A model generated the notes under the pieces. That model saw nothing but the letters and a program-made list of their open reading frames with translations. It was not told where the DNA came from and searched no databases. From Hemileia vastatrix (taxonomy: Eukaryota > Basidiomycota > Pucciniomycetes > Pucciniales > Zaghouaniaceae), in contig JASXTE010000007.1 in the NCBI GenBank assembly GCA_030280995.1, positions 4,138,001 through 4,202,000 of the forward strand: a stretch of DNA of 64,000 nt, read 5' to 3'. Below are positions 2,060-56,584 of this stretch, one piece after another. The position numbers and the translations under genes were made by a program. Position 1 is the first letter of the stretch. Every line of letters begins with the position of its first letter.

Positions 2060-2913
2060 AATATCTAAAATTGAAAGAATGATCCTTAGTTTATCCTCAT
2101 TGTGGAGTCAGTCTTCTTCATATCTTGTGCCTCTAGGATAAAATATTTTCACCTATTCTGCAACCACTATTTTCTTTAAGACATCACCATCCAACTCTTC
2201 AAAAAAATAAGAACCTCCATATACCTGAAATCTGATTCTGTAAGGTCCATTATATCTGTCAGAAAACATTTTCCCCACTGACTCTCCGAAATTGTATTAT
2301 AAGCCAGCACCAAAATACCAGGATTTAAGGGCTTCCTGAGTCTTTGAGCCAACTTCTTGTCCTAGTATCTAGCTGATTGATTTCTAATCTTCATCATTCT
2401 AGATTTATCCTTCTCTTGACATTCCTCTTTACATTCTAACTGTTACATCCTAGCACAGATCAAATATTCTGTTGAGTGCACCTCATCCAAATCATTTCCA
2501 AGGTAAGAAAAAGCTTCCAAGTCCACTGGTAAGAATTCCTACTTCCAAAACATTAACTCATAAGGATAATAGCCAGTTATCTTTTTCACAGTGACCATAT
2601 CAGCAAAAAAAACATAAGGTAAATAATGCCTCCACTTTTCAGCACTATCTCCACACATTTTCACCAAAGCACTCTTGATAACTTGACGGCCTCTTTCAAC
2701 CATGCCTTCGGCTTCAGGATAATAAGGTGTAGCAGCTCTAACCTTTGAGCCAATGCTAGCAAACTCTTCCTTAAATTCTGCAGAAAAATCTGGCCCACCA
2801 TCAACAGTTACCAACTTCATCAACCCATACCTATAAGTCCATTCTTTTTTCAAAAATTATGCTACATTTCTAGCAGTCAAATTAACCAAAGGCACAGCCT
2901 CAACCCAACCAGA
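2060..2913 (-). pseudogene. Family B integrase, catalytic core (C half) and C-terminal domain
   Basis: An open stretch at 2539-2853 encodes the second half of a retroviral-type integrase core, with DGGPDFSAEF (the second catalytic Asp) and YYPEAEGMVERG (the catalytic Glu region). Downstream on the minus strand, to about 2060, the translation continues with stops as an integrase C-terminal region (YNGPYRI, LDGDVLKK, FYPRGTRYEED). The N-terminal part of the protein lies across the C solo LTR, beyond 4213. The gene is dead: several in-frame stops and a missing start. Confidence 0.8.
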
Positions 2914-2918
2914 CAAAT

Positions 2919-4208
2919 TGTCAGCCAGGCTATACCAGGAGCCCAGCAAATTATATGTTAATTTACTGGACCTGAAAGAGTGCGTAAGAATTGTATTTTA
3001 TGTATATAAATTAATATTTTATTGCATAATAAAATTATATAAGTATCCTATTAATAATAAGTGTTATATTAAATTTATTGTTATATAAATTTTTATACAT
3101 TTGAATTAAGCTTAAATATATTTTATATTCTACAAATAATGACGCATTTTTATGTATTTAATAATTATAAATTAATAATTAATTAATTACAAAAACATAT
3201 ATTATAATTATATATGTAAAATTGACTTATAATCTAATTAAGTTAATTAATTAATTTTAAATATATTAAATAAAACCTCATATATTATTATGCAATAATA
3301 TTGGGCGCTTCTTTTGACCCTTATTTGTGTCAGGAAAAATTATTAAATAAATTATAATACTTATTTAATAACATAGTATTAAAATCCCCATTTTAAATTA
3401 CAAATAACACTAAATTAATTATCTGTTTCATTTAAACTAATTATTGAATTAATTACATAGTTAAAACAATAACTTAAAATTGCTTTAAACTGAATTGAAT
3501 CTATTCCATGAATTTTTGAGTGAAAATAATTTTATTTGTTTTACTTAAAACCTTTACATGTCACTATAATATCTGTTTTTGATTATTTTTACTCATTGTT
3601 CTCATGTTTCAGACTTACTTGGTTAATGATTATTTTAATTGAGTGTTTTGGGATGTTATGGTGGGAAAAAGATTAATTACTCACGGGTTTTAGTAAATTG
3701 TGTCATATTTTTCTCTTGATAGTCATGTTTCATTTTCTATTCTGTTATCTCTTGTTTTAGCTATTTCTAATTTGTATTTATTGATTGGTGGCGCTTCAGG
3801 GGTTCCTTGGTCTATAAAAGGGCCTTGGATAATCCCCTTTAAAGCATCATTACTATACAACCAAAATTTGAACAAATTGTTAATATAATATGTTTTATTA
3901 TTATTTTTATTAGTATTAAAATTCTAATTTAAATTCTATATAACTATTTACAGGTTGCTTTAAGTCTGATAGTAATTATAGTGTTTTCCGCGCAAAAATA
4001 ATAATCCTTGCTTAAAATAAATATTGTAATTTAATAATCCTTATTATTGTCAGCCCTCAAGTACATTGCCGTTGTCTCTCTTAAATAAATTAAATCATTT
4101 TATAATTTCACTACCTTTACTTTTTATAAACCTTTTCTTTCCTATTCCCCTTTTCCTCTTCTTCTTCTTTCCCCTTTTTCTTTCCTTCTTCTAGACGACC
4201 AACCAACA
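2919..4208 (+). mobile_element. Solo LTR, family C, 1290 bp, TSD CAAAT
   Basis: It starts TGTCAGCCAGGCTATACC and ends CCAACA, and both ends are flanked by CAAAT (2914-2918 and 4209-4213). It matches, with indels, the two LTRs of the complete C element at 49139-58572 (there on the minus strand) and the partial LTR at 63643. With no internal region and a perfect target duplication it is a solo LTR, normally left by recombination between the two LTRs of a full element. It interrupts the family B integrase. The Y-rich segment near 4140-4195 precedes the 3' end. Confidence 0.9.
3813..3820 (+). promoter_or_regulatory. TATA-like box in C LTR
   Basis: TATAAAAG is followed by GGCC in the LTR and is conserved, on the minus strand, in the two LTRs of the full C element (49522-49529 and 57673-57680). 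Position within the LTR and conservation suggest the U3 core promoter; no transcript data support this here. Confidence 0.5.
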
Positions 4209-4213
4209 CAAAT

Positions 4214-4620
4214 CATCCCTGGAGACAATCAAATATTTATACCTTCCCTCTTAAATAAGGGCAGCATCCAGACTGACTCTTTTAAATACAGTTGAGTCTC
4301 CTGTAGCATGGCCCATCTTTTTTGGGTTCAAGTGAATTCTTCTTCGACACTCTTTACAAGATTGAACCCAACCCTACGCAGCCAACTTCATACCAGGCTG
4401 CCAAAATCTGTCTGCTACTCTTCTGTAAGTCTCCCCAAAGCCTCTATGACAAAGGTCTTCATGCAAAGACTTCAACATAACTTCTTGACCCTCCTTCTGT
4501 TTCACCAAAGCTTGAGAATTTGTATGTCTCTTCCTCATCAGCCTTCTCCCTGACACATAAAATTCAGGACTCTTCTTCTTGATTTCCATTCAAGTATCAT
4601 CATTACAGCTATCTGGCCTC
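4214..4620 (-). pseudogene. Family B integrase zinc-binding (HHCC) N-terminal region
   Basis: The stretch at 4374-4589 encodes LHEDLCHRGFGETYRRV followed by DRFWQPGM, the typical H-x(n)-H part of a retrotransposon integrase zinc-binding domain that precedes the core. It is continuous with the core fragment at 2539-2853 once the C solo LTR is removed. Stops and the lack of the full Cys pair show decay. Confidence 0.7.
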
Positions 4621-20043: not shown

Positions 20044-20500
20044 ATTGGTAACAATGTATGTAAATTGTAAATTGTAAATTAATGTAAGTAATGTAGACTA
20101 CAATGTGAGAAACCATTGCCTTTAAATAGGCAAATGAGGCCCTATAAGACATTACTAAGGGTACAAAATAAAAGAAATAAATAAAATGAAGTGTTATAGA
20201 AGAATAAGGATTCTATGTAACTATTTACAAAAACAGAACAAAAGACCCCAGTTTATCCATCCCTTTAAACCCTGTAAAACAGTAAGAGATGAAATAGGAT
20301 ACTAGTTTTATCAACAACTGAAAAAATTTAACTAAAGTAATTACAAATACATTACATTTTGTTGTATTGTAAAAAATCCACTTTTTTAAGAAACAGAAAT
20401 ATATTATACTATTTGGGACATAAAATTGTTTATACCTAACTAATATTGTTTTAAAACAATACTTAGTAAGCAATTTAATCAATCATACTAGTATAATAAT
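20044..20500. other. Spacer between the two MITE copies
   Basis: AT-rich, contains a TGTAAATTGTAAATTG short repeat near 20055. No gene recognised; the minus-strand frame 20225-20482 has no recognisable domain. Confidence 0.4.
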
Positions 20501-20949
20501 AGGGGGTATCAATGTTCAAGGATCTGCAATTAGGGATCAGGAATTTTTTTTCCCGGGATCAGACATTATTAATTGCGGAAGATTCTTATTCACTAGCCCT
20601 GAGGCTAGTGGATAAGGAATCCATGATAATGCATTATCCCGCCTCTTATACCCCAATTTCCATTTCTAATTCCTGATCCAAACTCATCACATCCATGAGG
20701 CATATCCAGAGAGTAGTGCAAGATGTGGTTATGGCAGAAAGTTGTGCAACATGTGGTTATGACAGAAAGATGTCCAAGATGTGGTTATGAAAAATTGAGT
20801 AGAAAAATTTTGGATAAGAGGTGAACATTGACACGTAAAGTGTCTAATAACCCAATTATTAGCAAAAATAATTGCAGAAGATAATTGGGGTATAAGGATT
20901 TTTATCTGCAATTAATTTAATTGCGGATCCCTGAAAATTGATACCCCCT
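20501..20949 (-). mobile_element. Harbinger-like MITE copy 2, 449 bp, TSD AAT
   Basis: Same structure and orientation as the copy at 19594, with ends AGGGGGTATCAATGTTC / TTGATACCCCCT and AAT at 20498-20500 and 20950-20952. The two copies are about 460 bp apart and differ by scattered substitutions; each has its own target duplication, so they are independent insertions. Confidence 0.93.
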
Positions 20950-20952
20950 AAT

Positions 20953-21455: not shown

Positions 21456-21809
21456 AATAGGGGGTATCAATGTTGACTGATCCGCAATTAAATTAATTGC
21501 GGAAAATAATCTGCATACCCCAATTATCTTCCGCAATTATTTTTGCTAATAATTGGGTTATTAGACACTTTACGTGTCAATGTTCACCTCTTATCTGACA
21601 TTTTTATCCTCAATATTTGATAACCACATCTTGGACAACTTTCTGGATATCCCAGCCTTCTACCTTGCTGCGCACTTCCATTCTCATCCCATCCTGTTCA
21701 TTCTATCCGCTCAGAATTTCTCCCCATTTCATCTATTTGATTCTTCTCCTTTTCATCTCGCTATCTCATCTGCTTGTTTCTGCTCCTTTTCATCTTCATT
21801 TATAATAAC

Positions 21810-23207
21810 ATGCCTCGTCATCCTAGATCTTCTCAAAGGCAGCCATCACCCAGTTCTTCTTCAATTCCCACTACTTCCTCTTTTCCCCGCTCAGCCAAGA
21901 AATCAAAGACTGTTCAATTAAAAAAAGATGATCATCTCATTCTTATCAACTGGCTGAAAACCAAATCTAACTATGATTCTTGTTTTGGTACTGAGTATGC
22001 CACTAAAGTAGGACGGCCCCCCACATCAAAAGTTAATGGATATCTTCTAATGGCAAATGAATTACGCAATAAGACCAAGGGAAGGATTGATCTTTTGCCT
22101 AAACAGATGTCTGAACGCTTCAAGCATTATCAAGCAAAATACAAGAAGGCAAAGGCTCTTTCATCTTCCACTGGTTTTGGGGTTACTGACATTGATATAA
22201 CTAAGGGTATAAAATCCATAGACAATAAACTTGATTCTTTATGTCCTTACTTTAAAGAGATGGATGCAATTTTTGGAGAGCGAGCCGATGTTAATCCTGT
22301 AAACATGTTGGATGGAGAAGATCCTATCTCCAAACATGATGTCAAAGCAAATCTTTTCCCATCCTCTTCCTCCACTCAAGCCTCCCCTCTTCTAAATTCT
22401 ACGAATCTAGATAGCTTTGCTATTGATCCTATTGGCGATTTAACCCAACCCAATCTAACTCAGGTCTGTTTCTTTTATCTTATCAATTCTATTTTTTTAT
22501 TTACTTATATTTTTCTTATTTCTTAAAAGGCTGATGAACAAACCCAGGATCCTCAATCAACTGAGTCTGAAGCTAGTGACAATGATGAGGAGGAAAATGC
22601 TACATTGAACAAAAAGAGAAGGGCTTCAACTAGTCTAAATTTCCTCTCCCAAAGAAGACGAAAAAGTGATACTTCATCACAAACACCTTTTTCTTCGATG
22701 GAACAGTTTTTAGAGAAATGTGATGCTGGTAAGTGATATCATACCTCTTATTACTTTACTCTGCTTTTCTTCTACTTTATGTTAATTTTTATTCTCACTC
22801 TAGAACAAGTGGAAATTGCTAAAGAGACACTGAGCTTTGAAAAGAAGAAATACGAGCTCTCTTTAAGGAGGGATGACAGAGTACAAGATTTGGAAGAGAG
22901 GAAGTATGAGCTCTCCTTACGGAAGGATGATCGGATCCAAGATTTGGAGGAGAAGAAGTTTGAGCTCTCTTTACAGAAGGATGGTAGGGCCCAAGATTTG
23001 GAGGAGAAGAAGTTTGAGTTAACTCTTAGTATTGAAAAATCCAAAAATAAGGAAAAAACACTCGAGCATCAAAACTTAATGGAACAGATGAAGTATAAGC
23101 ATGATCTCCAAGAAAGTTCTAAAAAGAAAGATTTCTTGATCGAATGCATTAAAGCAAACAAATCTGTTGAAGAAATAGAACGTTTAATGAAATTTTTTGT
23201 TGACTAG
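21810..23207 (+). CDS. Harbinger accessory protein: SANT/Myb-like DNA-binding domain plus coiled coil, three exons
   Basis: Exons 21810-22463, 22530-22728 and 22804-23207 join to one 418-residue frame. Intron 1 (66 bp) is GTCTGT..AAAAG; intron 2 (75 bp) has a consensus GTAAGT and CTCTAG and splits a Glu codon. The N-terminus is Ser/Pro-rich; residues about 34-125 (DHLILINWLKTKSNYD, GRPPTSKVNGYLLMA, MSERFKHYQAKYKKAK) match the SANT-like protein of Harbinger elements abundant in rust fungi, which in PIF/Harbinger systems helps transposase bind ends and enter the nucleus. A basic KKRRAS / QRRRK region (possible nuclear signal) precedes a coiled coil with 18-residue repeats (KYELSLRKDDRIQDLEE type). 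No stop breaks it, so it may still be expressed. Confidence 0.85.
22850..23030 (+). repeat. In-frame 54-bp minisatellite in the coiled-coil exon
   Basis: Three full units and a partial one, each coding for 18 residues of the form KYELSLRxDDRxQDLEE, run head to tail. The unit length is a multiple of three, so copy changes would lengthen or shorten the coil without breaking the frame. Confidence 0.9.
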
Positions 23208-23344
23208 TTTCTTTTATTTCTTTCACACTTCATGTGTTCATATTTATTTGTACATAAATTTTACAATTATTTTCTGTATTTCTTGAAATATCGTATTTTA
23301 ATGTTAAATATTCTTTTTTTAAATAAAATTTTCAAGTCTCCTTT

Positions 23345-23759
23345 GAAAATTTGACAATCCCCCACCCCTGGATTTTTTTGAAGTAAGGGGTGGGTATCAC
23401 AAAAATTCTTTCATGTCATGAATCTTGAAAGTTTTATATGAAAATTTGGCTTTACTACCCCCTGCATTTTACCGGTATCCTAAAAATTCTTACATGTCAA
23501 GAATTTCACAAGTCTTATAAAAAATTTTGGCACAACCCCCCATGGATTTTATTGAAGTAAGGGACGGGTATCACAAAAATATTTACAAGTCAAAAAAATT
23601 CTATATCTGTTTAAAAAAATTGGCAATACTCTCCCCTGCATTTTATTGAAGCAAGGGGTGGGTATCACCAAAATTTTTCTAAGTCATCAATTTCACATGT
23701 CAGATTTGAAAATTTGGCAATACCCCCCCCTGCATTTTATTGAAGTAAGGGGTGGAAGT
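23345..23759. repeat. Tandem repeat, about 95-bp unit, five copies, inside the Harbinger-like element
   Basis: Copies centre on GCATTTTATTGAAGTAAGGG or its variants at about 23370, 23461, 23541, 23634 and 23728, each preceded by AATTTGGCAATACCCCCC-like sequence and followed by GGTATCACAAAAATT. The block lies between the convergent ends of the SANT gene and the dioxygenase gene and is not coding. Confidence 0.85.
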
Positions 23760-24055
23760 CATCTAAATTTAATATAATTACATAAATTATTAAATAAATA
23801 TCTAATATATATCAATTTCCCTAGTTTAAAGTAATGACAATCCCTCAAGCCAAAATGCAGACCAAGTCGAGAAACATAAGTTTGGGACTTTCTACAGGTA
23901 TAGGAAAGAGGAACCCCATGAAACAAATAAATGTTATCATGATTACCTGTTATACAACACAAGGTTGATGGCTCATCACATTATTTGAGAAAATTGATAT
24001 ATAAAAAATATTTATTAAAAATTTATGGAAAAATATAAAATTTTCGATGACAACT
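23760..24055 (-). other. Short unassigned stretch downstream of dioxygenase
   Basis: A minus-strand frame at 23759-23962 reads YLFHGVPLSYTCRKSQTYVS and RLGLHFGLRDCHYFKL. It might be a former 3' part of the dioxygenase or an unrelated exon; I cannot assign it. The rest is AT-rich. Confidence 0.25.
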
Positions 24056-24701
24056 CTAATCCCCATACTTTTTGGATCTAGATAAAGTTTTTTTAAATCG
24101 AATAACTTTACCTTCTTTCTTTACCTTATTGATTCTTTGTATCAACTTATTACTGATTTGAAATGAGCAACCGAAATGAGTGAAATCTTGACAGGATTTC
24201 AAACCAGGAGGAGCTTTGGTCGTTTGATGATTATCCTTAGAAGAATTCCAAATAGTTTCGATGATACCATTTCCCAAACCAAAATCAATGATGCACCGGT
24301 GGTCTGGAAAATATAAACCATGTCCTTTGATTTTAGCTGGAGATGGTATTGGGTGGCCACTTATCAGATTGATATATGAGAATATTCCAAAAGTAAGAAA
24401 ATTGGCATCATTCCTATCGATATGAATCCTATTGTGGAATCCAGAATGAGTGATAATAACATTAGAAAATAAAAGATATTCGTGGCTGATATCTTCCAAT
24501 TCGGAGTCACACCAATTTGGTATTCCAACTTTGGTTGCAAATTCATGATTTTTTTCAAATGCTTTATTACAGAGCTTGTTGAGTTGAAAAGCAAGAAAAG
24601 AGTCAAAGGAAGGTAGAGTGTCCCATAAGCGAAAATCTTCATCTTTTTGAGCTTTAGTGATATTCTTGACCAACGAATATATGCCTATATAATTGAAATG
24701 C
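24056..24701 (-). CDS. TET/JBP-like 2OG-Fe(II) dioxygenase, 3' exon (5' part not resolved)
   Basis: The open frame enters after a candidate splice acceptor (TATCTAG/GCATTT at 24702) and has no clear ATG, so upstream exons are expected. It reads GIPNWCDSELED, then SNVIITHSGFHNRIHIDRND, then TFGIFSYINLISGHP, then GHGLYFPDHRCIIDFG and NGIIETIWNSSKDNHQT. This order fits the fungal TET/JBP-type dioxygenases that use Fe(II) and 2-oxoglutarate, enzymes that oxidise methylated bases. The HxD iron pair is in HIDRND; the His of PDHRC is the likely third ligand. The tail is lysine-rich. Within about 200 codons no stop occurs. In fungi such genes are known with KDZ-type transposons; here one sits in a Harbinger-like element. 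Substrate and activity are inferred. Confidence 0.65.
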
Positions 24702-24784
24702 CTAGATAATAATCATATAAGAGTTTCAGAATCCTTATCCTCTAAATATGCAATATAAAAATGTGAAATAAGACAAGTGAAATT

Positions 24785-25106
24785 TGGAAAAAAGGCTCAA
24801 CTTCAAAGGTCAAAATCTCAGCAACCACTGAACCTAATTCAAACCTGTTTGTGGAAAATGAAAGATATGCTTTAGTAGAATCTTCAGTTAAAGGACATGC
24901 GATTTAAATAAACCTAACCCTAATTTGTTACATAAAAAAATGAAATAAAAATTTAAATTGGGAAAAAAAAGGCTCAACTTTAACGGTCAATATCTCAGCA
25001 ACCACTGAATCAAATTCAAATCTGTTTGCAGGAAATGAAAGGTAGCCTTCAGGAGAATTTTCAGCGAAAAGAACATTAGATTTGAATAAACCTAACCCTA
25101 ATTCCG
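24785..25106. repeat. Tandem duplication, about 175-bp unit, inside the Harbinger-like element
   Basis: Two copies (about 24785-24933 and 24960-25106) share GGCTCAACTT, CAGCAACCACTGAA, AATTCAAAYCTGTTTG, GAAATGAAAG and AAACCTAACCCTAATT in order. It lies upstream of the dioxygenase exon, where its 5' exons or promoter should be. Confidence 0.8.
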
Positions 25107-25948
25107 AGTCTGATTTTCAAAATTTTACAAAAACTTGAAAAGTGGTAATGAAGATGAGATCAAAAGGAGTTTTATAAGTTCACTGTTATCCAGATAAGAG
25201 TCATACATATATTTAAGTATGAAGTTTTCATAAAAGGAATGAGATATCATATAGGCATGAAAAAAAGGAGATGAAACTTACCTTGATTGAAAAGTAGGAA
25301 AAATAGAGTGAGAAAGATTGATGTTGGAATTGTGGGGAAATTGAATATGGAGTAAGTGAAATGCATAAAGAATGTGCAATGTATGTGTTTCAATGAAATG
25401 GAGCCAAAAAAAAGTGAAATAAGGGAAAGGGGGGATAATGACAATGCCAAGGAGGGATGAAGAGTAGGGTGATGGAGCTAAAAAATAAAGTAAAGAGGGA
25501 GAGAAAAAAAAGGTTAATTATACCATTGAAATCCAAAATAACCACTTACAAAAAAAATTTAGATAAAAAAAATAAAATAAACAGAAAAAAACAAAAAAAA
25601 ATTATAATTAGTAATCAAAAAATCAAAAAAAAGAATAAAATGACTTACCTGGAGAGATGAGATGACAAAATGAATGAAACCAAATTGTTTGAGGGATGTT
25701 GGAGGAGAATAGGAAAAGGATATGAGGGATGAATGAAAAAAAAAAATCACTGACAAAATATGCAATTTCAGAAAATATGCGATTTCATGTTGAGCTGGTG
25801 AAAGAAAACCGATGAGCCATCCAAAAAAAAGATATTCACTGTAAATTCAAAAAAAAAAATGAATATGCAACAAACCAAAATACAAAACCAAGTGATTAAA
25901 GTACACAAAGAGGACATTTGGAAAGTATGAAAACATAAAAATTAAAAA
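25107..25948 (-). other. Low-complexity stretch between dioxygenase and transposase
   Basis: Minus-strand pyrimidine-rich sequence with two good splice-donor sequences, CAATCAAG/GTAAGT near 25280 and CTCTCCAG/GTAAGT near 25648. These could be 5' untranslated exons of the dioxygenase gene. The missing C-terminal part of the transposase (second Asp and Glu motifs) was looked for here and not seen. Confidence 0.4.
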
Positions 25949-26581
25949 TTAAAAGGGTGAAGAGAAATGTTGGAGAGTAATTGCAGGCTTTTGACTCAAA
26001 GGGATGGTTGTGCCATCAACAAAACCTACACAGCCAGGGAAACCTTCAGCTTGCATTACTTGAGAGGATTCAAGTCGCTGTTCTGGAGTTGGCCAAGCAA
26101 GAGTTTGAGACTTGAGGGAAAGGATAGCAATCATACAGCGCTTGGTGTATAATATCACGGTACCATATCCTATGTTAAAGAGATTATCCAAACGTCTTAC
26201 GGCAGCACCATTTCCATTTGAGCCAAAGCGACATAGAGCAACAGCAAGTTGGATGGCAGGATTACGCTTTTTGTTATGAGAATTGTTATGGAAGATAGGA
26301 TGATCGGAGATGAGTTGATAAAGTTTGAAGAAAGAATCGGGAGAAGTTCTAAAAAGTTGTGTGAAGTTTAAATGAGGAATGTTGAGAATGGAGGCCAGAT
26401 CATATCGGGGATCATGATAAAGATTTGGCCCCCTGGTGATGATGTAATGCTTTTTGGAAAGAAAACACATATAAGCTAAAGCATCTTCCAAATCAGAGTC
26501 AGATTTATAGTAAAGAACTAAAAGAAAAGTAATAGCATTCATTGTTGAGTGAAGTAGCTTCCTAGTAGAGAGGTGTTTCAT
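25949..26581 (-). pseudogene. Harbinger (DDE_Tnp_4-type) transposase, truncated after first catalytic motif
   Basis: ATG at 26581 (MKHLSTRKLL). Of about 210 codons, the middle reads FFKLYQLISDHPIFHNNS, then IQLAVALCRFGSNGNGAAV and IGYGTVILYTKRCM, the helix-turn-helix/N-terminal region of Harbinger transposases. It ends GFPGCVGFVDGTTIPLSQKP, which holds the first catalytic Asp in the family's VDGTxxPL motif. Directly after QKPA the similarity stops and a TAA follows; family members continue for about 150-200 residues with the second Asp and the Glu. No splice donor is evident at the break, so an internal deletion is likely. It would bind DNA at most, not cut it. Confidence 0.8.
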
Positions 26582-26845
26582 TGTTGCCAGTGGAAGGGTT
26601 ATGTGATGAGGGAAGTGGGAATTCACCGCCAAATGTGCAGTTGGGGTGTGTAGATAGAAAAAAAACTTAAGTGTTCGCCACCAAAATTAAGTAGCATAGA
26701 GTGAGGAAATACTTAAGGATGGCATCAGCAATTATAAGTCATGTGACTTTCTTAAAAATCCATCATGGATGAGATGAGTTTGGGATCAGGAATTAGGAAT
26801 GGAAATTGGGGTATAAGAGGCGGGATAATGCATTATCGTGGATTT

Positions 26846-26877
26846 CTTATCCACTAGCCCTGGGGCTAGTGGATAAG
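26846..26877. repeat. Perfect palindrome near right end of the Harbinger-like element
   Basis: Same 15-bp arms and 2-bp centre as at 19678-19709, about 85 bp inside the terminal repeat. Conserved in all three copies in the window. Confidence 0.85.
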
Positions 26878-27029
26878 AATCTTCCGCAATTAATAATGTC
26901 TGATCCCGGGAAAAAAAATTCCTGATCCCTAATTGCGGATCCCTGAACATTGATACCCCCTAATATAGCCTGTCTATCAAAGATCATCTGATATGACTCA
27001 GCTTATTCTAAGATAGAAAAAAATTTATC

Positions 27030-29184: not shown

Positions 29185-30762
29185 TTATTTAGATTTAAAT
29201 TTTTTCAAGAGATTTTTAAGATCAGAGATTTCATTTTCTAGAATCCACTGGTCATATTCACTTGATTTATTTTTAAATCTTAATAGATACTCAACTCCCT
29301 TTTCTTTTGTAAGGTGTCTCTTTTTAAGTATCTTTTCCATTTCTGCCTTTTCAACTATTTCTTCAGGTTGCTGTTTATGCCTTCCTGATCTTCTTGGAAA
29401 TAGAGCAGTATCATTAGAATGGTATGGTTTCATAAGAGAAATAGGAAATACTGGATGTTTTCTATCATATGGTGCATATAGAATAACCTCAACAGCATTA
29501 TTACCAACCATCTTTTTAACTAAAAATGGTCCAATGAATGGATCCTTCAATTTAACATTACTATTTAAATTGAAATTTAGTGTTGAAATAAGGACTTCAT
29601 CACCCTCTTTGAACATTTGTTCTTTATGGGCTTTATCCCATCTTTTCTTTTCATACTCAAACGCCTTATTGATACATTCTTGAGCATGTTTTCTGCATAA
29701 TTCCTGCATCTGAAGAAAAGATTTAGTACCTGGATGGATATCCAATCTAGGTAACTTATTAAGAGTTTTAGCAGGGGTATTAGGTACATAACCCAACCAT
29801 AACTCAAATGGCTTTTTGCCAGTGACAGAATGTACTGTACTATTGTATGCAAATTCTAAACCTGGGATAAGGGTTACCCAATCATGTGTGAATTTGTCAT
29901 TGTCTTTAAAATTAAGACCAAAAGCACAGTATCTTCTTATCATATCTTCTAAGTTTTGTATCATTCTTTCTTCTAGCCCATAAGTTTGTGGATGGTGTGC
30001 TGTAGAAGGTTTTAATTGACACCCTGAAACATCCATAAGTGATGTCCAGAACTCACAAGTAAATTTAGGATCTATGTCAGAAACTATTGCTTTGGGGAAA
30101 CCTGCTGTATTTAACATTTGTGTCCACCATAAAAAAGCTAAGTCCTTTGAAGAAACCTCTTTGTGGGTAGGAATAAATTTATACATCTTTGTAAATCTAT
30201 CTACAATTACCCAGCAGGAGTTATAACTCTTATGCCCTGCTATTGGCAAACCTGTTACAAAGTCCATGTTAATGATTTCCCATGGAGCTTTTGGTTGCTC
30301 AATTTGTTGTAATAAACCAGCTCTTTTGCCTGTTAATCTTTTAGATTTTTGACAAGAATCACATGTTTCAACATATTTCTGAACATCCTCAGACATGTTA
30401 ATCCACCAAGCTGTGTTTTTTACTCTGGTTAATGTTTTATGGTAGTCAAAATGACCTGCTAATATATCATCATGACATATACTTAACATTAACTCCTTCA
30501 TTGAAGGGGGAATTACAATTACATTACTTAATTTTTTCTTGTAATATATAAAACCATCCTCAATGGAAAATTTTCCTTTTTCTAATGCCTCTTTATACTT
30601 ATTTTGTAATGTTTTTATTAAAACATTCACTGAAGCATTAGATGGATCATTTAATATTGTAGTTAATTTACTCAAGTCAAGATCTGAATTATAATTATCA
30701 AGAATTGATTGCATAAATTCATCCTCAAGATCTACAATATAAATGCCATAAATGTTAATAAT
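29185..30762 (-). pseudogene. A2 integrase with chromodomain
   Basis: A 509-codon open frame ends at 29185. From the N-terminus: HHCC zinc domain (GHFDYHKTLTRVKNTAWW, CDSCQKSKR), catalytic core with MDFVTGLP (Asp 1), VSDIDPKF (Asp 2; the usual Arg is Ile) and a Glu in GLEERMIQ, GPY-type region (GPFLVKKMVGNNAVE), and a C-terminal chromodomain (VEYLLRFKNKSSEYDQW), which in chromoviruses directs integration to particular chromatin. The PQTDG motif reads PQTYG. One stop separates it from the RNase H. It makes the DNA cuts and joins for insertion; activity here is doubtful because of the changed residues near the catalytic sites. Confidence 0.9.
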
Positions 30763-31338
30763 CTATGACTCAGGAACATAAGCAGGATTATCATCATTAT
30801 TAGGCAGATGTACTCTAGATAACAGATCTACATTAGAGTGCAAGGTTCCTACTCTATGTGTAATAGTCATCCGGCCTCTGAATTCTTGTACAGCTAATTT
30901 CCATCTAAACATGTGTCTATTAGGAGTTTTCATGTTTAAGAGTGACTTAACTGCACTACAGTCAGTTATTAACTCAAATTTTTGGTCTTCAAGGTAATAA
31001 TATAGCTTCTCAAGAGCCCATTCTACTGCCAAACATTCAAGTTGAGTAGCACCATATTTCAATTCACCACTTCTCAGAGTACGTGAAATATAGCAGATTA
31101 CTACTTCTGACATTTTCCCTTCAATAAGTTGTTTTTGATGCAAAGCAGCACCCAGTCCAATAAAACTTGCATCTGTATATAATACAAAAGGTAATTGGAA
31201 ATCTGGTAATCCCAAGATAGGAGCTGTCATTAAACATTCTTTCAACTTATCAAAAGCTTGTTGTCTTTCATTATTCTAAATGAAAGCTTCTGATTTCTTT
31301 ATCAGTGTGGTCAGTGGTGCAGCAATTGATTGGTAGTT
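30763..31338 (-). pseudogene. A2 RNase H
   Basis: FVLYTDASFIGLGAALHQK carries the first catalytic Asp; LECLAVEWALEKLYYYL the Glu; FELITDCSAVKSLL the next Asp; ending near VDLLSRVHLP (usually DxLSR). Stops separate it from RT at about 31336 and from integrase at 30763. The enzyme would remove the RNA template during reverse transcription. Confidence 0.88.
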
Positions 31339-32130
31339 TTATATATATTGTCTATAATAACCACACATTCCAAGAAAAGATTGTACATCCTTTACATTTT
31401 GAGGAATTCCAATATTCTTTATTGCAGCCATTTTATTTTGGTCTACACATATTTGTAAGCCAGATACAATATGACCAAGCACTTTTAAAGATTCAAACCC
31501 AAATTTACATTTTTTCAATGCAAGGGTCATTTTTATTTCATCCATTTTTTGAAATACTTTCCTTAAATGGATTAAGTGTTTATCATAAGTTTTTGAGAAC
31601 ACTATGATGTCATCAATGTATACCATTAATCATCCCTCAATCATTTCATTATGGAATGTTATATCCATTAACTTCTGAAATACTGATGGAGCATTTTTTG
31701 GTCCAAATGGCATTCTGACATACTTATAAATTCCCATGTGTGTTGTTATGAACAAAAAGTTCTGTGAATTCTTTTCAACAGGAATTTGATGGTACCCTTT
31801 ATTTCCATCTAGGCAACTTATATATTTAGCACCTTTAAGGGTAGCATGTATAGAGGCAATCCTTGGCAAGGGATAAATATCATCTACTGTAAATGTATTT
31901 AATGCTCTATAATCACCGCACAGTCTTGCTTTATCTTGTTCATAAGAAATTAGCACTGGTGATATTACACAATATTTTGGTGTAGTTTCAACCTTCTCAA
32001 GAATGTTCATTTTTAATAACATCTTAATATTATCCTCTATGTCTTTCCTCTTAATTGGTGAAGCAGGGTATGGTTTCTTTTTAAGACTAGCAGGAATATT
32101 ATTTATATCACAGGTTAAACTAATCTTCAT
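31339..32130 (-). pseudogene. A2 reverse transcriptase
   Basis: Motifs in order: KPYPASPIKRKDIEDNI, CVISPVLISYEQDKARLCGDYRALN, KYISCLDGNKGYHQIPV (first Asp), YVRMPFGPKNAPSVFQ (motif B), then a stop replacing Trp (TGA, about 31627) and LMVYIDDIIVFS (YIDD catalytic pair), HIVSGLQIC, and SFLGMCGYYRQYI. Apart from the TGA the domain is complete. The YIDD box, rather than YVDD, is shared with the C element. Confidence 0.9.
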
Positions 32131-32141
32131 TTCATGATCTT

Positions 32142-33418
32142 TTACAAGGCCAAGTTCATATGTGCAAAAGCCATTGGAAATGCTTTAATTAATTCAAAAT
32201 TATTATCTTTCTCAGCTTTACTTATCTGAGTGCCAAATGATGCTTTTGAAATTTCATTTTCCAGAAGTTCCATCTCATTGGATTCTCTTCCTTTACACGG
32301 GGAATTTGTGACTGACTCAATGTGTAAGACTGTGTTAAAAGAATTTATTTTAAATTTCCTTTTACCATTCATGCCAATTGTAAAATTGTTATTAGCAGGG
32401 TCTAATTTCACACCAAATTTAGTCAGAATATCATTTCCAATGATAAAACAGTTACTACAGTTATTATTATCCATTACTACAAAGTCACAAGTTACCCTTA
32501 CATAACCATGTTGGTGTTTAAAGAAAACAGCAGCTTTGTATTTACCAATCACCACACAATATGGGGGGCGGACTTGCTAGCAAGTCCGCAACCTTGGACC
32601 CAAACTCACCATAGATTGAACACACATTGAGCTATTGATAAAGGAACCATACAATCAGGGATGAACACCACTCAGTAGAACAGTTTTAGGTGGGTGTTCA
32701 AGTAGAGTTCAGTATGGGTTCAGTATGAGTTCAGTCTGAGTTCCATCTGAGTTCCATCTGAGTTCAGGTTGAGAACTTGCTAGCAAGTCCACCCCCTATA
32801 TTGCGTAGTGAATGGGGTGTAGCACTGATCCAAAACCTCTCCAATTTTTACTTTGAAGTGGCTCAAGCTTAGACTTATATTCACTATCAATTTTGTGTAA
32901 TGTATTAGTGGAAAAAACAGAACCAGCAGCTCCTGTGTCCAGTACTATATTAGATTTTCACCAGAAATGATAGCTGGAACTGTGATAGGTGTCATTCTAA
33001 AGTTATCAGCTTGTATATCCTTAATGATTTCAGCATCCTCAAAATTCATTAAAGATTCATTTGAGTCCATATTTAATATTGGATTTTCAAAGATGGACAA
33101 ATCATCTTCCAACATACAGACTTCATTTTCATCACTATATGAGATATTGCTGTCATAATCACTTGATTCTTTACTTTTTTCAGTTTCAGTTTCAGATTCA
33201 CATTGATTTTCAACAATATTTATGTTTTTCTCACATTTGTGACCTTTGACCCAAGGTTTGTTACACTTATAACAAGTATTTGTTTCATACTTTTTAGGTA
33301 CTACAGGTGCAGTAGGTTTTTTCTGCTTCTCCTGAAGTGTTTTTGAATTCTGGGTTTTTACAGGTTCAACATTTTGTTTAAAATTGGAATACCTTGCTTC
33401 ATACTTATGGTTTAACAA
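32142..33418 (-). pseudogene. A2 nucleocapsid and protease, interrupted by a MITE
   Basis: The zinc knuckle CYKCNKPWVKGHKC (C-x2-C-x7-H-x-C spacing) is followed by an acidic serine-rich linker. The protease active site reads VLDTGAAGSVFSTN near 32930-32890, one frame off the upstream gag because of a 1-base change at about 32945. A 261-bp MITE (32550-32810) separates this from the protease C-terminus (FIIGNDILTKFGVKLDP). Downstream lies the linker to RT. Without the MITE and the shift the domain would be complete. Confidence 0.88.
32550..32810 (-). mobile_element. CACTA-ended MITE (family M1), 261 bp, TSD AAT
   Basis: Ends CACCACACAATATGGGGGG and ...CCCCCTATATTGCGTAGTG are inverted repeats flanked by AAT (32547-32549 and 32811-32813). 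Just inside each end lies GGACTTGCTAGCAAGTCC, an 18-bp perfect palindrome (with one change at the right end). The middle has short repeats of the type GAGTTCAGTATG. It is inverted relative to the copies at 40464 and 59819. It disrupts the A2 protease. No coding capacity. Confidence 0.93.
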
Positions 33419-35308
33419 TATTTCATTACAAATATTTATAAAGTCAGAATATTCAGTAACATTAACTTTTCTAGCTACAACAATGTCTCTGACAGATATA
33501 GGTAATTTATATATTATCTTATCTTTCTATAAGTTAAAATCCATATGAGGCTCAATGGCTTTTAATATTTTGTTTAAATTCATTAAAAATAGCATAGGTT
33601 TGTCACCATTCAACGGATTATACCTAGTCTTCTCATAAAGTCTCTGCTGAGTAAGCCTGAATTTAGAACCTCCAAATTGTTTTTCAATAAGTTGTTTCCA
33701 TTCAGCCCAAGAGTAGTCTCTACCCTCACTTAAGACAGCTTGAAACCATAATAAAGCAACATCCTTAAATAAAGAAATTAATTTTGATGTTATCTCTTCA
33801 TCTGGTAACTTATATGAGAATTTCAAGTTGTCAATTCTTTGAATAAAATGATGCCAATCAGAGCTGGCTTCCCCATCATAAGTTGGGTACTGATCTATCT
33901 TAGGCCAGTTTTTCTGATTGGATTTTATCTCACTAATCTTAGGTAAATTCAACAAATCATTTACTTTTGATAAATGGTCTTGTATTTCTTCCTGCACGGA
34001 TTTGTGACTTACATTTTCAGATTTGACACTACCACCAGATGGTTTTAATTGTGGTGGTACAGGGAAGGAATGAGATTCACTTTTGCCAATGAAAAGATTA
34101 TTATTATATTTATTATACTTATGATTATCCTGGTTCATTAGTAGATTGGCAGTTTTAATCTCAACTTTAGATAATCTTTGTAGCAACTCAGAGACACTTT
34201 GATTTGTCTGGGAAAAAGATAACTTTGTTCTTGATTCAGTTTTCAATAAATGTGTTTCATATAATTTTTCTAACTCACAGAATTTGTTTGAAAGGTCATT
34301 ATATTTATTACTCAATGAATCATATTTAAAAGTTAGAGACAAATGTTTTTTCTCTAATTCTTTGTTACGTGTTGCTAATTGAGAAATGTTTAATGTCAAG
34401 GATGAAATTGTATCACTAGTGAGCTTAACTGTCTGTTCCTCACAATCAGTCATTCTATTCCACAATGCTGAAACAATTCTATGGACAGTTGGATTATTGT
34501 TAAAATATTCCATGTCTTCCTTTTCAATTCTCTCACTCTCATGTGAACTTCTCATCTCACTAGTAGGTGGTTGCAACTGAGGTTTAACTGTTTTATCATT
34601 ATAAATAGTACTGTTATTGTGGACAAAAGACAAGTCAGGTGTATCTACTCTAAAACCTAAATTTCTTAAATCCTCCTCTATTTTTTGCACAGACTTAACA
34701 TCAATAGAATTACCTATATTGTAATTATCAGTATTATGTTCAATCTGAGAGGGTAATCTACTTACCATGGGATGGTTGCCAGTCCTGATTTTTGGCGCTT
34801 TTTTACTTTGTAAGGGTGAGCTGAGGAAGTCAGATGAGGTGGTGGATCCCAGTTGCAACTGTGGCTTGTCCACTGTTGATGAAACCAGTCCTATTTCAAT
34901 TTTTCTACCAGGATTTTCTCCTGGGAGTGAGTTGACCCGCCTTGGATAGGGGGTTGCTGATTTGACTGACTGGGCTGGCCTCCCTTTAACTCTGCCAATG
35001 CCTGATTCATCTGCTGAAACCCTACCTTGCAATTGTTTTGCAACTGCTCTACCTCTTTGAACATGAGTGATTTTGATTCCTCCAATTTCAGAACCTTTTT
35101 GTCCAGGTGGGACAGTTTATCCTGAAGAGGAGGAGTCTTCTTTTTTATAGTTATCTTTTTTAAGAGGGCATCCTTTTCCTCTATACTCATGCTTTCTGCC
35201 TGGGGGTAATGTTGACCCTCCATGGTGATGTCCTGGAAAGTTTTTGTTAGCTTTAGACCTGGTATTATAAGCAGGCTTTTCACTTACACTGTCCTGGGGA
35301 GCACTCAT
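33419..35308 (-). pseudogene. A2 gag
   Basis: ATG at 35308 (MSAPQDSVSEKPAYNTRSK). This frame stops at 35117, reopens and runs 35032-33527, where TAG replaces Trp (DFNL*KDK; A3 has DFNLWKDK), then joins the nucleocapsid frame. A second frame at 34891-35283 carries the coiled coil MSIEEKDALLKKITIKK... as in A1 and A3. Later regions: long heptad stretches (LATRNKELEKKHLSL), a capsid-like NWPKIDQYPTYDGEASSDW / LWFQAVLSEGRDYSWAEWK. It would form the virus-like particle shell. Confidence 0.85.
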
Positions 35309-52402: not shown

Positions 52403-53727
52403 TTATTTCTGGTGAAGGGCAGCACCCAGATCAACAAAGCTAGCATCTGTATACAGGAAAAAAGGTTTGTTGAAATCTGGAAGAGCTAAGATAGGGGCTG
52501 TCATTAAGGAACATTTTAATGCATCAAAAGCTTTTTGACAATCAATATTCCAGATGAATGCAACATCTTTCCTAGTTAGTTTGGTAAGAGGCAAAGCTAT
52601 GACCTGATAATTTTTAATATATAGTCTGTAATAGCCACACATACCCAAAAAACTTAGGATTTCTCTCACAGAAGTTGGTGCCTTTACATTTTGAATTGCA
52701 GCAACTTTTTTGTGGTCCACACAAATTTGTAGGCCTGACACAACATGGCCAAGGACTTTTAAAGATTGAAAACAGAATTTACACTTTTTCAAGGACAAGG
52801 TCATATTGATTTTATCCATTTTCTGAAAAACTCTATTTAAGTGAACCATATGTTCATCAAAAGTTTTAGAAAAAACAATGATATCATCAATATACACCAT
52901 AAGCCATCCTTCAATTATTTCCTGATGGAAAGTGTTATCCATGACTTTTTGGAAAACTGAAGGTGCATTTTTAGGGCCAAATGGCATTCTAACATACTTA
53001 TATATTCCCATATGAGTAGCTATAAGCAAAATTTTTTGAGAATTTTTCTCAACTGGAATTGATGAAACCCTTTATTACCATCCAGACAACTAATAAATTT
53101 TTCACCTTGCAAGGTAGCATGTATTGAATTAATTCTGGGTAAAGGATACATATCATCAACATTATAAGTGTTTAATGCTTTGTAATCTCCACATAATCTA
53201 GCCTTATCCTTTTCATAAGAAATCAAGACTGGGGAGATGACACAATATTTGGGGGTGACATCCACTTTCTCAATGATATTCATTTTTAATAATTTGGCAA
53301 TATTATCTTCAATATCTTTTCTTTTTATTGGAGAAGCAGGATATGGTTTTTTCTCAAGACTAGGAGGAATATCACTCAAGTTACAGGATAAGGTAGTTTT
53401 CATTTCTTCCTGAATACTTCCTAAGACATGAGAACCATGAGCAAAAGCCATAGGGAAGGAGGTAATTGAGGCAATTATAGAGTCCTTTTGTTCACTAGTT
53501 AGCTGATCGCCAAAAGAAGCAGTATTTATTTCTTTTAATAAATCATCCATTTCAATTGTTGGTCTGCCTATACACTGGATCAGTGAGTTACAAGGCTTTA
53601 ACAGATTACCAGAAGGTTTTCTAGGGGAAGAAATTTTGAATTTTTTTTTTCCATTCAATACCAAGGTGAAGCAATTATTTGCTGGGTCCGATTTCACACC
53701 CAACATGGTTAAAATATTATTACCCAT
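52403..53727 (-). pseudogene. C element protease C-terminus and reverse transcriptase
   Basis: 53020-53727 begins with the protease end (GNNILTMLGVKSDP), a linker, then RT motifs PYPASPIKRKDIEDNI, CVISPVLISYEKDKARLCGDY and FISCLDGNKGFHQ (first Asp). After a 1-base shift at about 53029, 52403-53029 continues with YVRMPFGPKNAPSVFQ, WLMVYIDDIIVFS (YIDD pair), HVVSGLQIC and FLGMCGYYRLYI. Only the one shift breaks the domain. Confidence 0.9.
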
Positions 53728-53823
53728 AATAAACCAATTGCTTTAATTATCATTTTTCATGACAACAAATTCACAAATAGCTCTGACAAAACCACCATTA
53801 TATTTGAAGAATACATAGGTTTT

Positions 53824-54675
53824 TTATTTTCCAATAGGAAACAAGGTAGAACCATACCATCTCCATTTTTCAGAAGTCATAGGTAACAGTTTACTCAAAT
53901 AATCCTTATATACTGAAGCTAAGGCTCTTTCAGACACTACACTTCCTCCAGCACCAGAGTCAAGAACTACATCAACATTTTTACCATTAATGATAACAGG
54001 TGCCTTCAAAGGAGATATGGCTATAGAATTGTTAGTAATATCTTTAATTCTTTCAGCATTTTCCACTGAAGATAAATCCAATACACATTCTTCAGACATA
54101 TTATCTAAATCATGGACATCCTGCTCAAACATTAAAAAATCTTTAACAGATTCATTGTAATAGGAGATATTACTTTCACAGTCACTAGAAGAATTATTGA
54201 TATCAATTTCGGCTACATCAGTGTTTTCATTTTGTTCAACAAGATGAATTTTCTTGTCACAAACATGACCCTTTTGCCATGATTTGTTACATTTATAACA
54301 AGTATTTGTTGCATATTTTTTAGGTGCAACTGGGGCAAAGAATTTACCAGATTTTTTTGGGGGCTTTGTAGAGGGTTTATTTTGATCAAGATAAGATATT
54401 CCAAGGTAATTCTTTGGTTCATATCTATGGTTGAGCAGTACCTCATTACAGAAATTAATGAAAAAAGAATGTTCCCTCACATGCTCAGCTCTAGCTACAA
54501 TTAAATCTCTAAGAGAATTTGGTAATTTATACAAGATTATATCTTTCCAAATATCATAATCCATCTTTGGATAAATTGCTCTCAGGTTTTTTGTTACTTT
54601 CATAAGAAAAACAATGGGTTTTTCAACAGAGGAAGATACATATCTAGTATTCTCATACAGTCTTTGCTGAGCCAA
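53824..54675 (-). pseudogene. C element nucleocapsid and protease N-terminus
   Basis: Gag end (RLYENTRYVSSSVEKP, LPNSLRDLIVARAEH), zinc knuckle CYKCNKSWQKGHVC, acidic linker, and protease active site VVLDSGAGGSVVSERA (D-S-G kept). The stop at 53824 separates it from the protease C-terminus. Confidence 0.85.
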
Positions 54676-55160
54676 ACTGAATTTTGAACCACCAAACTAA
54701 TTCTCAATCAAGGATTTCCAATCATTCCATGTATAATGGTTTTTATCTAATATAACAGATTCATACCACATCCAGGCTACATTGGAAAATAAAGAAATTA
54801 GCTTAGAAACAATTTCCTCATCAGGTAGTTAATAAGATTTCTTTAAATTATCATTCTTTGGATAAAGTGTTGCCAGTCAGATGAAGAATCACTACCAAAG
54901 GTAGGATATTGGTCCAATTTAGGCCAATTTTTCTGACTACTGGGATGGTCCATCATTTGGTTTGAATTATTTATCATTAATAATTCCTAAAGTTTAGACA
55001 GGTGTTTAGAAATTTCATTATTTACAGAAATAGCTGGTACATGACCATCACAAGATTTTTTTCTAGTAGAAAAAGATTTCACAGATTCATCGTCAGGTTT
55101 TTTAATGGCTGAAATATGAGGAAGAAAATAGGAGCTCTGTTCAGGTTCTTTTCCCTTATT
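54676..55160 (-). pseudogene. C element gag, capsid-like middle with stops
   Basis: Translation reads SQKNWPKLDQYPTFGSDSSS and DWQHFIQRM, the counterpart of the A gag segment QKNWPKIDQYPTYDGEAS. Several stops follow. Confidence 0.7.
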
Positions 55161-56105
55161 TTAATGCAGCTTATGGGCAGCATTCTCATTTATACCATAA
55201 TTATTGATGGTTAAGGTTGAAAATTTTTCCTGCAGGTCAGACACATAGTTTCTTATCCTTGGAATTTCAGACATCTGTTCATTTACTTTTGCAAGAGATA
55301 AAACATTTCTGTCCTTATAAACTGTGTGTTTGGCACTTAGTGCATGGAAATCATTTTTTAGATTTTTAAACTCATTTTGTAGAGATTTAATTTCTCTTTT
55401 TAATGAATAATTTTCCTCAATAAGGGGTTTCAATTCACCCAAGGCTTTATGTAGATTGATATTCCTATCTGAGATAGATCTATGGTCACTCCTTATTTGT
55501 TTTTGTTGGCTAAGAACAATATTCAAGGTTTCTTTAATTTTAAAATAAGCTGTATCTTGTACAGAAGAACTTACTTTACAATGAAAGTGCAAATTACTTA
55601 ATCTATCACTCTCATGTCTTAAAAAACTTCTCAAATGTTTGTCTTTCACAACATTAAAATCAAGGGTATCTTTCAATATTTCTTCAGAATTTTTCTCAAT
55701 TAAAGTATAGACTTCAGGGGAAACAGAATTATTTTTAATTGCAAGAGAAGGATTAATTAAATAAGTAGAAGTCAAATGTAAAGGTTCATCAAATGATAAT
55801 TTTCTAATTACATCATTGGGGCTACTCATTAAAGGAAGTTGTCTTTTTAAGGGTTTAACTGTTCTTCCACCAGGATCCACAATATTACCTGAAGAAGCTT
55901 TGTTATTATACATACAAACATGTTTATCAAACAAATTACTCACCATGGCAAGGGAGGAAACTTCCCCTGTGCCTTCTTTCTTCTGCCTCCCTGATAAGGA
56001 TGGGGCTGAGGAGATCGATGGTAAGTTGGTGTCCTGGATGGGCCAGGGTGTTGAGCTTGTGGTTGCTGAACATTCTGTTGCTAATGGCTCATCAAATAAT
56101 CTCAT
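55161..56105 (-). pseudogene. C element gag, second frame
   Basis: ATG at 56105 overlaps the stop of the first gag frame (ATGA). The frame runs 314 codons: a Ser/Pro-rich start (MRLFDEPLATECSATTSS), then long heptads (HFHCKVSSSVQ..., LKREIKSLQNEFKNLKN), as in the A gag. It stops at 55161 just before the capsid-like part. Confidence 0.75.
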
Positions 56106-56584
56106 TTCCACTGCTCCACCTGCAGAGTGCTTTGATTTTGCGTGAAGGAGCTAGGTACTTGATTGGGCTGAGGTTGAGGCTGAGGCTGGGAGGCTGGGAA
56201 ACGAGGAGATTGAGCCTGTTTGGGATTTAATGATTCCTGCATCTGCTGCCAGAGTGTGTCTACTCTTGCCTTGTACTTCATGCTTTCTGCTTTCAGTTCT
56301 TTGATGTGACTGGACAGGTTGTTTACTTGTTGAGTCAGTGGTATCTTTTTTATTTTTATACCTTTGAGTTGATTTTCCTGATTTATTAGAGGTTTTACTT
56401 CTTTCAGAGGTGTTTGGTGAGAGGGTTTTTCCACTTCTCCTGCCGTTTCCACATCCTGAAGGTTTTTTTCAGCTGAATAATTTTTGTAAGTTAATTTAGA
56501 ATAACCTACAGATTCAGTGTCACCATCCACTTCAATCTCATCCACATGTAAGTTATCCATGCTGTTAGCCAAACTACTGGACAT
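56102..56584 (-). CDS. C element gag, first frame (coiled-coil N-terminal ORF)
   Basis: 160 codons from ATG at 56584 (MSSSLANSMDNLHVDEIEVD) to TGA at 56102. The acidic start is followed by KIKKIPLTQQVNNLSSHIKE and a coiled coil, then a Pro/Gln-rich tail (QPQPQPQPNQ) ending VEQWK. It corresponds to the coiled-coil frame of the A elements, which ends at the same place (EKILVDKWK in A1). It is uninterrupted. Confidence 0.7.
   Translation of the reverse strand: MSSSLANSMDNLHVDEIEVDGDTESVGYSKLTYKNYSAEKNLQDVETAGEVEKPSHQTPLKEVKPLINQENQLKGIKIKKIPLTQQVNNLSSHIKELKAESMKYKARVDTLWQQMQESLNPKQAQSPRFPASQPQPQPQPNQVPSSFTQNQSTLQVEQWK

What the first reader, a model, noticed from the sequence alone, without database searches (positions are those of the whole stretch)
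21459..26961. Harbinger-like transposon that carries a TET/JBP-like dioxygenase
Seen: perfect 3-bp target duplication, matched ends, a SANT-like gene, a truncated Harbinger transposase and an open dioxygenase frame with the HxD box and the PDHRC...IDFG...IIETIW block, all between one pair of ends. Known: in fungi TET/JBP genes are reported mainly with KDZ-type transposons. Inference: here a different superfamily has taken up a DNA-base oxidase, perhaps to alter host methylation at its own copies or to expose its ends. I do not know of a described Harbinger element with this cargo.
Basis: partly seen in the sequence, partly recalled or inferred. Interest (0 to 1): 0.88.

Follow-up and report, generated by a model that had tools for sequence, protein, structure and literature searches.

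The report
Harbinger transposon with truncated TET gene
This is a mobile DNA element that carries part of a gene for an enzyme family known to remove DNA methylation marks; in this copy that gene and its own mobility gene are both cut short, fuller relatives exist in the same genome, and elements of this general type were described in 2025.

Summary
Window 21459-26961 is a Harbinger-type DNA transposon with matched AGGGGGTATCAATG ends, an AAT duplication, a weakly SANT-like gene, a truncated transposase and an exon matching the TET-like profile PF20515 (E 7.2e-30). All 26 copies that I aligned hold this exon, and 24 of 24 copies with both ends read have an identical 3-bp AWT duplication; a nested insertion gives the empty site.
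Two corrections. First, the copy is cut short twice. A 627-bp in-frame deletion removed most of the DDE domain; 144 sites share its junction. The dioxygenase is only its 3' exon: two 7.4-kb relatives, L049+L050 and L051, carry an upstream TET exon that the window element lacks; the break lies inside the intron. Second, the idea is not new: Kojima 2025 (PMC12730594) describes fifteen TET+ Harbinger families in rust fungi.
What seems new: a 3-bp duplication instead of his TA, the copy number (1,230 intact-boundary and 1,697 truncated-joint sites), and the same truncated module in a second Harbinger-like family with different ends (two sites). Best reading: a non-autonomous derivative moved in trans, its dioxygenase probably dead.

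The parts
21456..21458 (.). left target-site duplication AAT
   Evidence: 24 of 24 copies AWT/AWT; empty site
21459..21472 (+). left terminal inverted repeat AGGGGGTATCAATG
21810..22463 (+). third gene (weakly Myb/SANT-like), exon 1, from ATG
   Evidence: PF13837 E 0.014, below cut-off; homologue P0002 E 3.3e-16
22530..22728 (+). third gene, exon 2 (GT-AG borders read by eye, no RNA evidence)
22804..23207 (+). third gene, exon 3, charged repeat region that looks like a coiled coil, with stop
   Evidence: similar charged tail in P0002 (judged by eye)
24056..24684 (-). TET/JBP-like dioxygenase, 3' exon with HxD and second His; upstream exon missing
   Evidence: PF20515 E 7.2e-30, profile 46-211; exon start by comparison with L049, L047, L048
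24416..24424 (-). HxD motif (H97, D99 of the 218-aa frame)
   Evidence: invariant in the 6 sequences of alignment A3
24227..24229 (-). second His (H162, HxTTxAP)
   Evidence: invariant in A3
24700..25565 (.). segment in place of the 5' part of the TET gene; matches L049 only in its last 30 or so bases at E 1e-5; shared with the second family (L070, L071) and with a piece beside L013
25949..26581 (-). truncated Harbinger transposase frame; of the presumed DDE residues (by eye) the first D is kept, the second D and the E are lost
25983..25984 (.). junction of the 627-bp in-frame transposase deletion
   Evidence: 144 genomic sites, reversed-pattern control 0
26948..26961 (-). right terminal inverted repeat
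26962..26964 (.). right target-site duplication AAT
20501..20949 (-). 449-bp MITE-like derivative of the same family, AAT at 20498-20500 and 20950-20952; no TET
   Evidence: read by eye

Best explanation
The window element is a non-autonomous, twice-truncated derivative of a cut-and-paste Harbinger-type transposon whose fuller 7.4-kb form encodes three genes: a DDE_Tnp_4 transposase, a third protein (perhaps the DNA-binding helper usual in this superfamily) and a TET/JBP-like dioxygenase of at least two exons. Shown: ends, 3-bp AWT duplication, gene content, both truncations, site counts, fuller relatives. Inferred: the transposase of fuller relatives mobilises the derivative in trans; the dioxygenase of fuller elements oxidises methylated bases in or near the element and so eases silencing; the window copy's dioxygenase, lacking the N-terminal part, is inactive and rides along as a relic.
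For: 24 of 24 copies with identical AWT duplications and an empty site. L010: 454-aa open transposase frame, PF13359 E 6.5e-24. 627-bp in-frame deletion; junction at 144 sites, control 0. L049+L050 (7,414 bp, ATT/ATT) and L051 (7,449 bp, AAT/AAT, 454-aa open transposase frame) carry the TET N-terminal exon; a predicted 59-nt GT-AG intron joins it in frame to the 3' exon (L049). tblastn does not find the N-terminal exon in the window or L010 but finds a degenerate one in the older relative L038, so its loss is derived. A homologue, L048, matches PF20515 over positions 7-211 in one frame. dN/dS of the 3' exon: 0.27 window vs L045, 0.36-0.49 window vs L039/L040/L041/L046; among the 26 window-type copies about 1.06, crude. 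In CcTet, N-terminal loop residues contact DNA and Arg92/Arg96 to Ala abolish binding (PMC11040006, passages).
Against: The 3' exon holds both His and the Asp of the presumed iron site; 22 of 26 copies are open through codon 200 with HxD intact, and a new upstream exon could in principle be spliced on. Near-neutral change among copies is also expected for a gene that works in trans; the catalytic core alone gives 0.74. One pair among the four fuller-type exons (L040-L046) has dN/dS 1.54, the other five pairs 0.25-0.40. In both fuller copies the TET frame is broken between the Ser-rich start and the conserved exon and L049's transposase is also damaged, so no fully intact element of this family was seen. 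In a weakly resolved tree the three full-transposase copies group with one deletion copy (0.94) inside the deletion copies. No expression data; trans-mobilisation is inferred.
Confidence: 0.77

Rival explanations
1. The window-type dioxygenase is still functional: the replacing segment supplies a new first exon and a working, N-terminally changed enzyme is made.
For: The exon keeps 645 nt in 26 of 26 copies; 22 of 26 are open through codon 200 with HxD. The truncated joint is at 1,697 sites. Fewer replacement changes than expected in the core (15 observed, 26 expected). A stop-free stretch with a GT-AG option upstream is in phase (by eye).
Against: That upstream frame has no Met that I saw and no match to the TET N-terminus. 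The profile match starts only at position 46. Both second-family copies are damaged: L070 has 2 stops in the exon, L071 has Asn for the Asp of HxD. Core synonymous changes are also below expectation (7 observed, 9 expected), so the core ratio is 0.74 on 22 changes.
Confidence: 0.13
2. The TET exon is a late passenger caught by one non-autonomous copy and amplified with it.
For: The window-type copies with the deletion lack a full transposase and a full TET gene.
Against: Fuller relatives and an older relative carry TET at the same place and orientation.
Confidence: 0.04
3. It is an ordinary member of Kojima's PHISTA, and the difference between TA and 3-bp duplication is only one of reading.
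For: Same superfamily, same cargo, three genes; the flanks read AWTA..TAWT, so TA could be called; his third protein also lacks a recognised Myb/SANT domain.
Against: The middle base of AWT matches left and right in 24 of 24 copies, and the empty site fits one AAT, not one TA. His termini and supplements were not visible to me, so his families could not be re-read.
Confidence: 0.3

Closest known systems
TET+ Harbinger families (PHISTA) of Pucciniales, Kojima 2025, PMC12730594
   Same: Harbinger-type transposase, TET/JBP gene and a third protein in one element; fifteen families in six rust species
   Different: PHISTA is defined by TA duplications; here 3-bp AWT. The window copy lacks the TET N-terminal exon and most of the DDE domain.
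Nuwa lineage of PIF/Harbinger (as described in Kojima 2025)
   Same: 3-bp duplications; transposase plus a second protein
   Different: Adds TET; Myb/SANT of the third protein not secured here; no tree made
KDZ transposons with TET/JBP (Iyer et al. 2014, not seen; known through Kojima and recall)
   Same: Fungal DNA transposon with TET/JBP cargo
   Different: Different transposase (DDE_Tnp_4) and 3-bp rather than 7-8-bp duplications
CcTet of Coprinopsis cinerea (PMC11040006, passages)
   Same: TET/JBP superfamily, HxD...H iron site (by family)
   Different: Only remotely related by sequence: no PDB chain found; the window gene lacks the N-terminal part

Membership tests
PIF/Harbinger superfamily | DDE transposase of the DDE_Tnp_4 type | tested here: met
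   L010 PF13359 E 6.5e-24; the window copy keeps only the N-terminal part
PIF/Harbinger superfamily | inverted ends and short (2-3 bp) duplication | tested here: met
   24 of 24 AWT; empty site
PIF/Harbinger superfamily | second protein with Myb/SANT domain | tested here: inconclusive
   PF13837 16.2 and 14.0 bits, cut-off 27; model pLDDT 43
PHISTA | TA target duplication | tested here: not met
PHISTA | place in the PHISTA clade of the transposase tree | not tested
TET/JBP dioxygenases | PF20515 profile match | tested here: met
   105 bits against cut-off 27, E 7.2e-30, positions 46-211 only
TET/JBP dioxygenases | HxD and downstream His | tested here: met
TET/JBP dioxygenases | complete domain | tested here: not met
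   N-terminal exon not found in the window element
TET/JBP dioxygenases | oxidation of 5mC | not testable with these tools
   needs an assay
KDZ transposons | KDZ transposase and 7-8-bp duplication | tested here: not met
   DDE_Tnp_4 in L010 and 3-bp duplication

The most novel reading that the evidence does not exclude
In this genome a TET/JBP gene has become a shared good of a large Harbinger population: fuller elements supply transposase and demethylase, while derivatives that shed the TET N-terminus and the DDE core still amplify in trans. A truncated TET module, once formed by a break in the TET intron, has moved between two Harbinger-like families with different ends, and its joint is now found at more sites than the intact boundary (1,697 to 1,230).
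Probability: 0.35. Interest if true: 0.62.

Novelty: new variant of a known kind. Interest (0 to 1): 0.45.

Why it matters
It adds a Harbinger lineage with 3-bp duplication to the TET-carrying transposons and shows several stages side by side in one genome: fuller, transposase-less and TET-truncated forms, in numbers large enough to ask whether a transposon-borne demethylase works for its own copy or for all copies. The recent copies show strong C-to-T change at CpG (47 of 60 non-coding CpG positions changed in some copy, against 53 of 951 other C positions), as expected of methylated DNA; so the enzyme, if active, does not prevent it.

Tried and rejected
Tried without result: PDB sequence search with the dioxygenase, the L010 transposase and a six-sequence profile (one hit, E 0.45, across an expression tag, rejected as chance). 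The structure model of the third protein was too poor to search with; a model of the dioxygenase was never accepted. Protein database: one relative each for the dioxygenase (P0001, 40%) and the third protein (P0002); neither bears a name. A count of full-length transposase junctions and of second-family ends was wanted, but the genome search stayed busy (last tries). In one search the dioxygenase was first translated in the wrong frame; one search is the correct reading. In one search part of the script failed; the part for L012, L013 and L024 was redone. Rejected: TA duplication; late passenger; KDZ.

In print: I looked for a TET+ Harbinger with (0 papers; 419 papers, 20 listed; 0; 6; 39, 5 listed). 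Among what these listed, only Kojima 2025 is known to me to describe such elements; I saw its abstract, Results parts 1-2 of 3, Discussion part 1 of 2 and passages, not its figures or supplements. Of PMC11040006 I saw passages only. I did not see a TET+ Harbinger with 3-bp duplication described in these.
Full report
1. What is there. The window lies at C42:4138001-4202000 of an unnamed 747.6-Mb assembly of 791 contigs. The element runs 21459-26961, 5,503 bp, flanked by AAT on both sides. It has 14-bp matched ends. On the + strand lies a three-exon gene (21810-23207); on the - strand lie a 218-aa open frame (24056-24712) and a truncated transposase frame (25949-26686) (exon borders by eye). The 218-aa frame matches PF20515, the TET-like 2OG-Fe(II) oxygenase profile, at E 7.2e-30, positions 46-211 of 211.

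2. Copies and duplication. A full-length DNA search scored 26 of 12,982 first-look candidates, so its counts are lower bounds. I aligned 26 distinct copies. Both ends were read in 24; all 24 have the same three bases on both sides, 15 AAT and 9 ATT. Copy L025 sits inside an older relative lying the other way round; keeping one AAT restores the older element's sequence, and the same stretch runs uninterrupted in the window element. So the duplication is 3 bp, AWT, and not TA.

3. Transposase. Three of the 26 copies (L009, L010, L037) carry 627-628 more bases at the point where the window frame ends. In L010 this gives one 454-aa frame that hits DDE_Tnp_4 at E 6.5e-24. L009 and L037 have interruptions. 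The window copy is thus an internal-deletion derivative. Of the 23 deletion copies, 21 were matched at the junction and have the same one; in 2 (L023, L026) the anchor was not found. The junction occurs at 144 places with up to one mismatch, none for the reversed pattern. The tree of the 26 is weakly resolved; the three full-transposase copies group with L035, a deletion copy (support 0.94), and are not at the root under midpoint rooting.

4. The dioxygenase is truncated. One search listed 150 scored places for PF20515, all over the cut-off, from 10,849 candidates; I fetched 8 of the 150 as L039-L046 and 2 more as L047, L048. L041, extended as L049+L050, is a 7,414-bp element with the same ends and ATT/ATT. 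It is 97% identical to the window element over its first 3,241 bases, then differs up to base 4,107 apart from a short 67-base match at 4,077-4,143. The differing stretch begins inside an intron of the TET gene. In L049 the upstream exon (111-aa frame) joins across a predicted 59-nt GTATGT..TAG intron in frame to the 3' exon. In L047 and L048 the same N-terminal part lies in one open frame with the catalytic part; L048 matches PF20515 at positions 7-211. tblastn finds a degenerate N-terminal exon in L038 but none in the window, the window element or L010; the other 24 aligned copies are collinear with the window element there. L051 is a second fuller copy, 7,449 bp, AAT/AAT, with a 454-aa open transposase frame. 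Against a tidy story: in L049 the transposase frame has a stop and the presumed second catalytic Asp (by eye) is Tyr, and in both L049 and L051 the frame is interrupted between the Ser-rich start and the conserved TET exon.

5. Selection. Between the window and more distant homologues the 3' exon shows constraint: dN/dS 0.27 against L045 and 0.36-0.49 against L039, L040, L041, L046; against L044 dS was saturated; among the four fuller-type exons five pairs give 0.25-0.40 and one, L040-L046, 1.54. L038, L042 and L043 were left out of this count (frame breaks, an inserted residue, a stop). Window against L049: third-gene exon 1 0.43, TET exon 0.38, truncated transposase piece 1.51; L010 transposase against L049 0.88. 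Among the 26 window-type copies, changes are near a neutral expectation from non-coding rates: TET exon 48 N and 15 S observed, 54 and 18 expected (1.06); its first 78 codons 1.47, core 0.74, end 0.89; third-gene exon 1 0.78 and exon 3 1.69; transposase piece 0.68 (crude). The exon keeps 645 nt in 26 of 26; 8 of 26 have a stop, 5 of these at codon 201 beyond the Pfam match; L033 has Asn for the Asp of HxD; 22 of 26 are open through codon 200 with HxD. Near neutrality fits a relic, but also a trans-acting gene, so it does not decide alone.

6. Methylation signature. In non-coding parts, 47 of 60 CpG positions show a C-to-T change in some copy against 53 of 951 non-CpG C positions. By singletons TCG is not higher than CCG or GCG. 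CpG observed/expected is 0.386 in the element and 0.178 in the rest of the window. This suggests that the copies are or were CpG-methylated; methylation was not measured.

7. Numbers in the genome. Left ends 2,553; intact intron/3'-exon boundary 1,230; truncated joint 1,697; each with up to two mismatches, reversed controls 0. The lists show only the first 100 places each, all exact; I compared those on C2 and C19. Of 57 listed left ends there, 10 have a truncated joint and 8 an intact boundary at the expected 3.2 kb; of 54 truncated joints 10, and of 23 intact boundaries 8, have a listed left end; with strands flipped 0; of 7 listed transposase-deletion junctions 6 have a truncated joint at the expected distance. 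So 39 of 57 ends show no exactly matching TET site; MITE-like copies such as window 20501-20949 may be one reason. Probing the expected place of the left end on C2 for sites without a listed end, 4 of 6 intact sites (of 14) have one nearby, one of them weak, but 0 of 12 truncated sites (of 38) do; 3 of these 12 show other parts of the element there. Two truncated sites (L070, L071) were read further: they belong to a second family with ends AGGGGGTGTCAGTTCTGGCAAA, in L070 a 3,755-bp element with ATT/ATT (the left end of L071 lies outside the stretch fetched). They share 95% over bases 2113-4469 of the window element, including the TET 3' exon and the replacing segment. Many truncated joints may lie in this family; only two sites were examined.

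8. Origin of the joint. A piece beside L013 begins at the same joint (base 3,238) behind unrelated DNA. The window family therefore looks like a recombinant: left half from the fuller TET+ lineage, the segment after the intron break from another context. The direction of transfer between the two families is not settled.

9. How it works. Recalled for the superfamily: a DDE transposase with a helper protein excises and reinserts the element. Inferred here: fuller relatives supply transposase; the derivative moves because its ends are intact. The TET enzyme of fuller elements probably oxidises methylated cytosine and eases silencing, as Kojima proposes; he states that this is not validated by experiment. 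The window copy's enzyme lacks the N-terminal part; in CcTet an N-terminal helix bundle and a DNA-contacting loop are described (PMC11040006, passages), though I could not align the two.

10. Novelty. Kojima 2025 reports fifteen TET+ Harbinger families in six rust species, with TA duplications and no Myb/SANT in the third protein. The type of element is therefore known. The 3-bp duplication, the scale, the truncated forms and the sharing of a truncated module between two Harbinger-like families are additions to what I saw of that paper. The host is perhaps a rust fungus, by the known distribution of such elements; this was not tested.

Noticed in passing
window 20501-20949: 449-bp MITE-like derivative of the same family, inverted relative to the main element, with its own AAT duplication, 509 bp upstream of it.
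   Followed up: partly
L070:23-3777 and L071: Second Harbinger-like family with ends AGGGGGTGTCAGTTCTGGCAAA that carries the truncated TET exon (TSD ATT/ATT in L070); one piece is about 70% similar to the transposase region in reverse orientation.
   Followed up: partly
genome-wide: PF20515 is massively expanded: 150 of 150 scored places pass the cut-off, from 10,849 first-look candidates; L044 and L045 are only 57-58% identical to the window protein and their host elements were not examined.
   Followed up: partly
window 24056-24712 and alignment A3: TET enzymes are said to have a conserved 2-oxoglutarate-binding Arg (Arg385 in CcTet); after its second His this group has the block THFGCSFQI without Arg in six of six sequences of A3, though L043, outside A3, reads TRFGFSFQI. 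Whether the positions correspond was not tested.
   Followed up: no
window 24755-25103: Two tandem copies of about 172 bp, about 82% alike, inside the replacing segment; the piece beside L013 has further matches to them.
   Followed up: no
window 29185-35116 and 52403-56150 (-): Open frames that look like Gypsy-type retrotransposon polyproteins (by eye).
   Followed up: no
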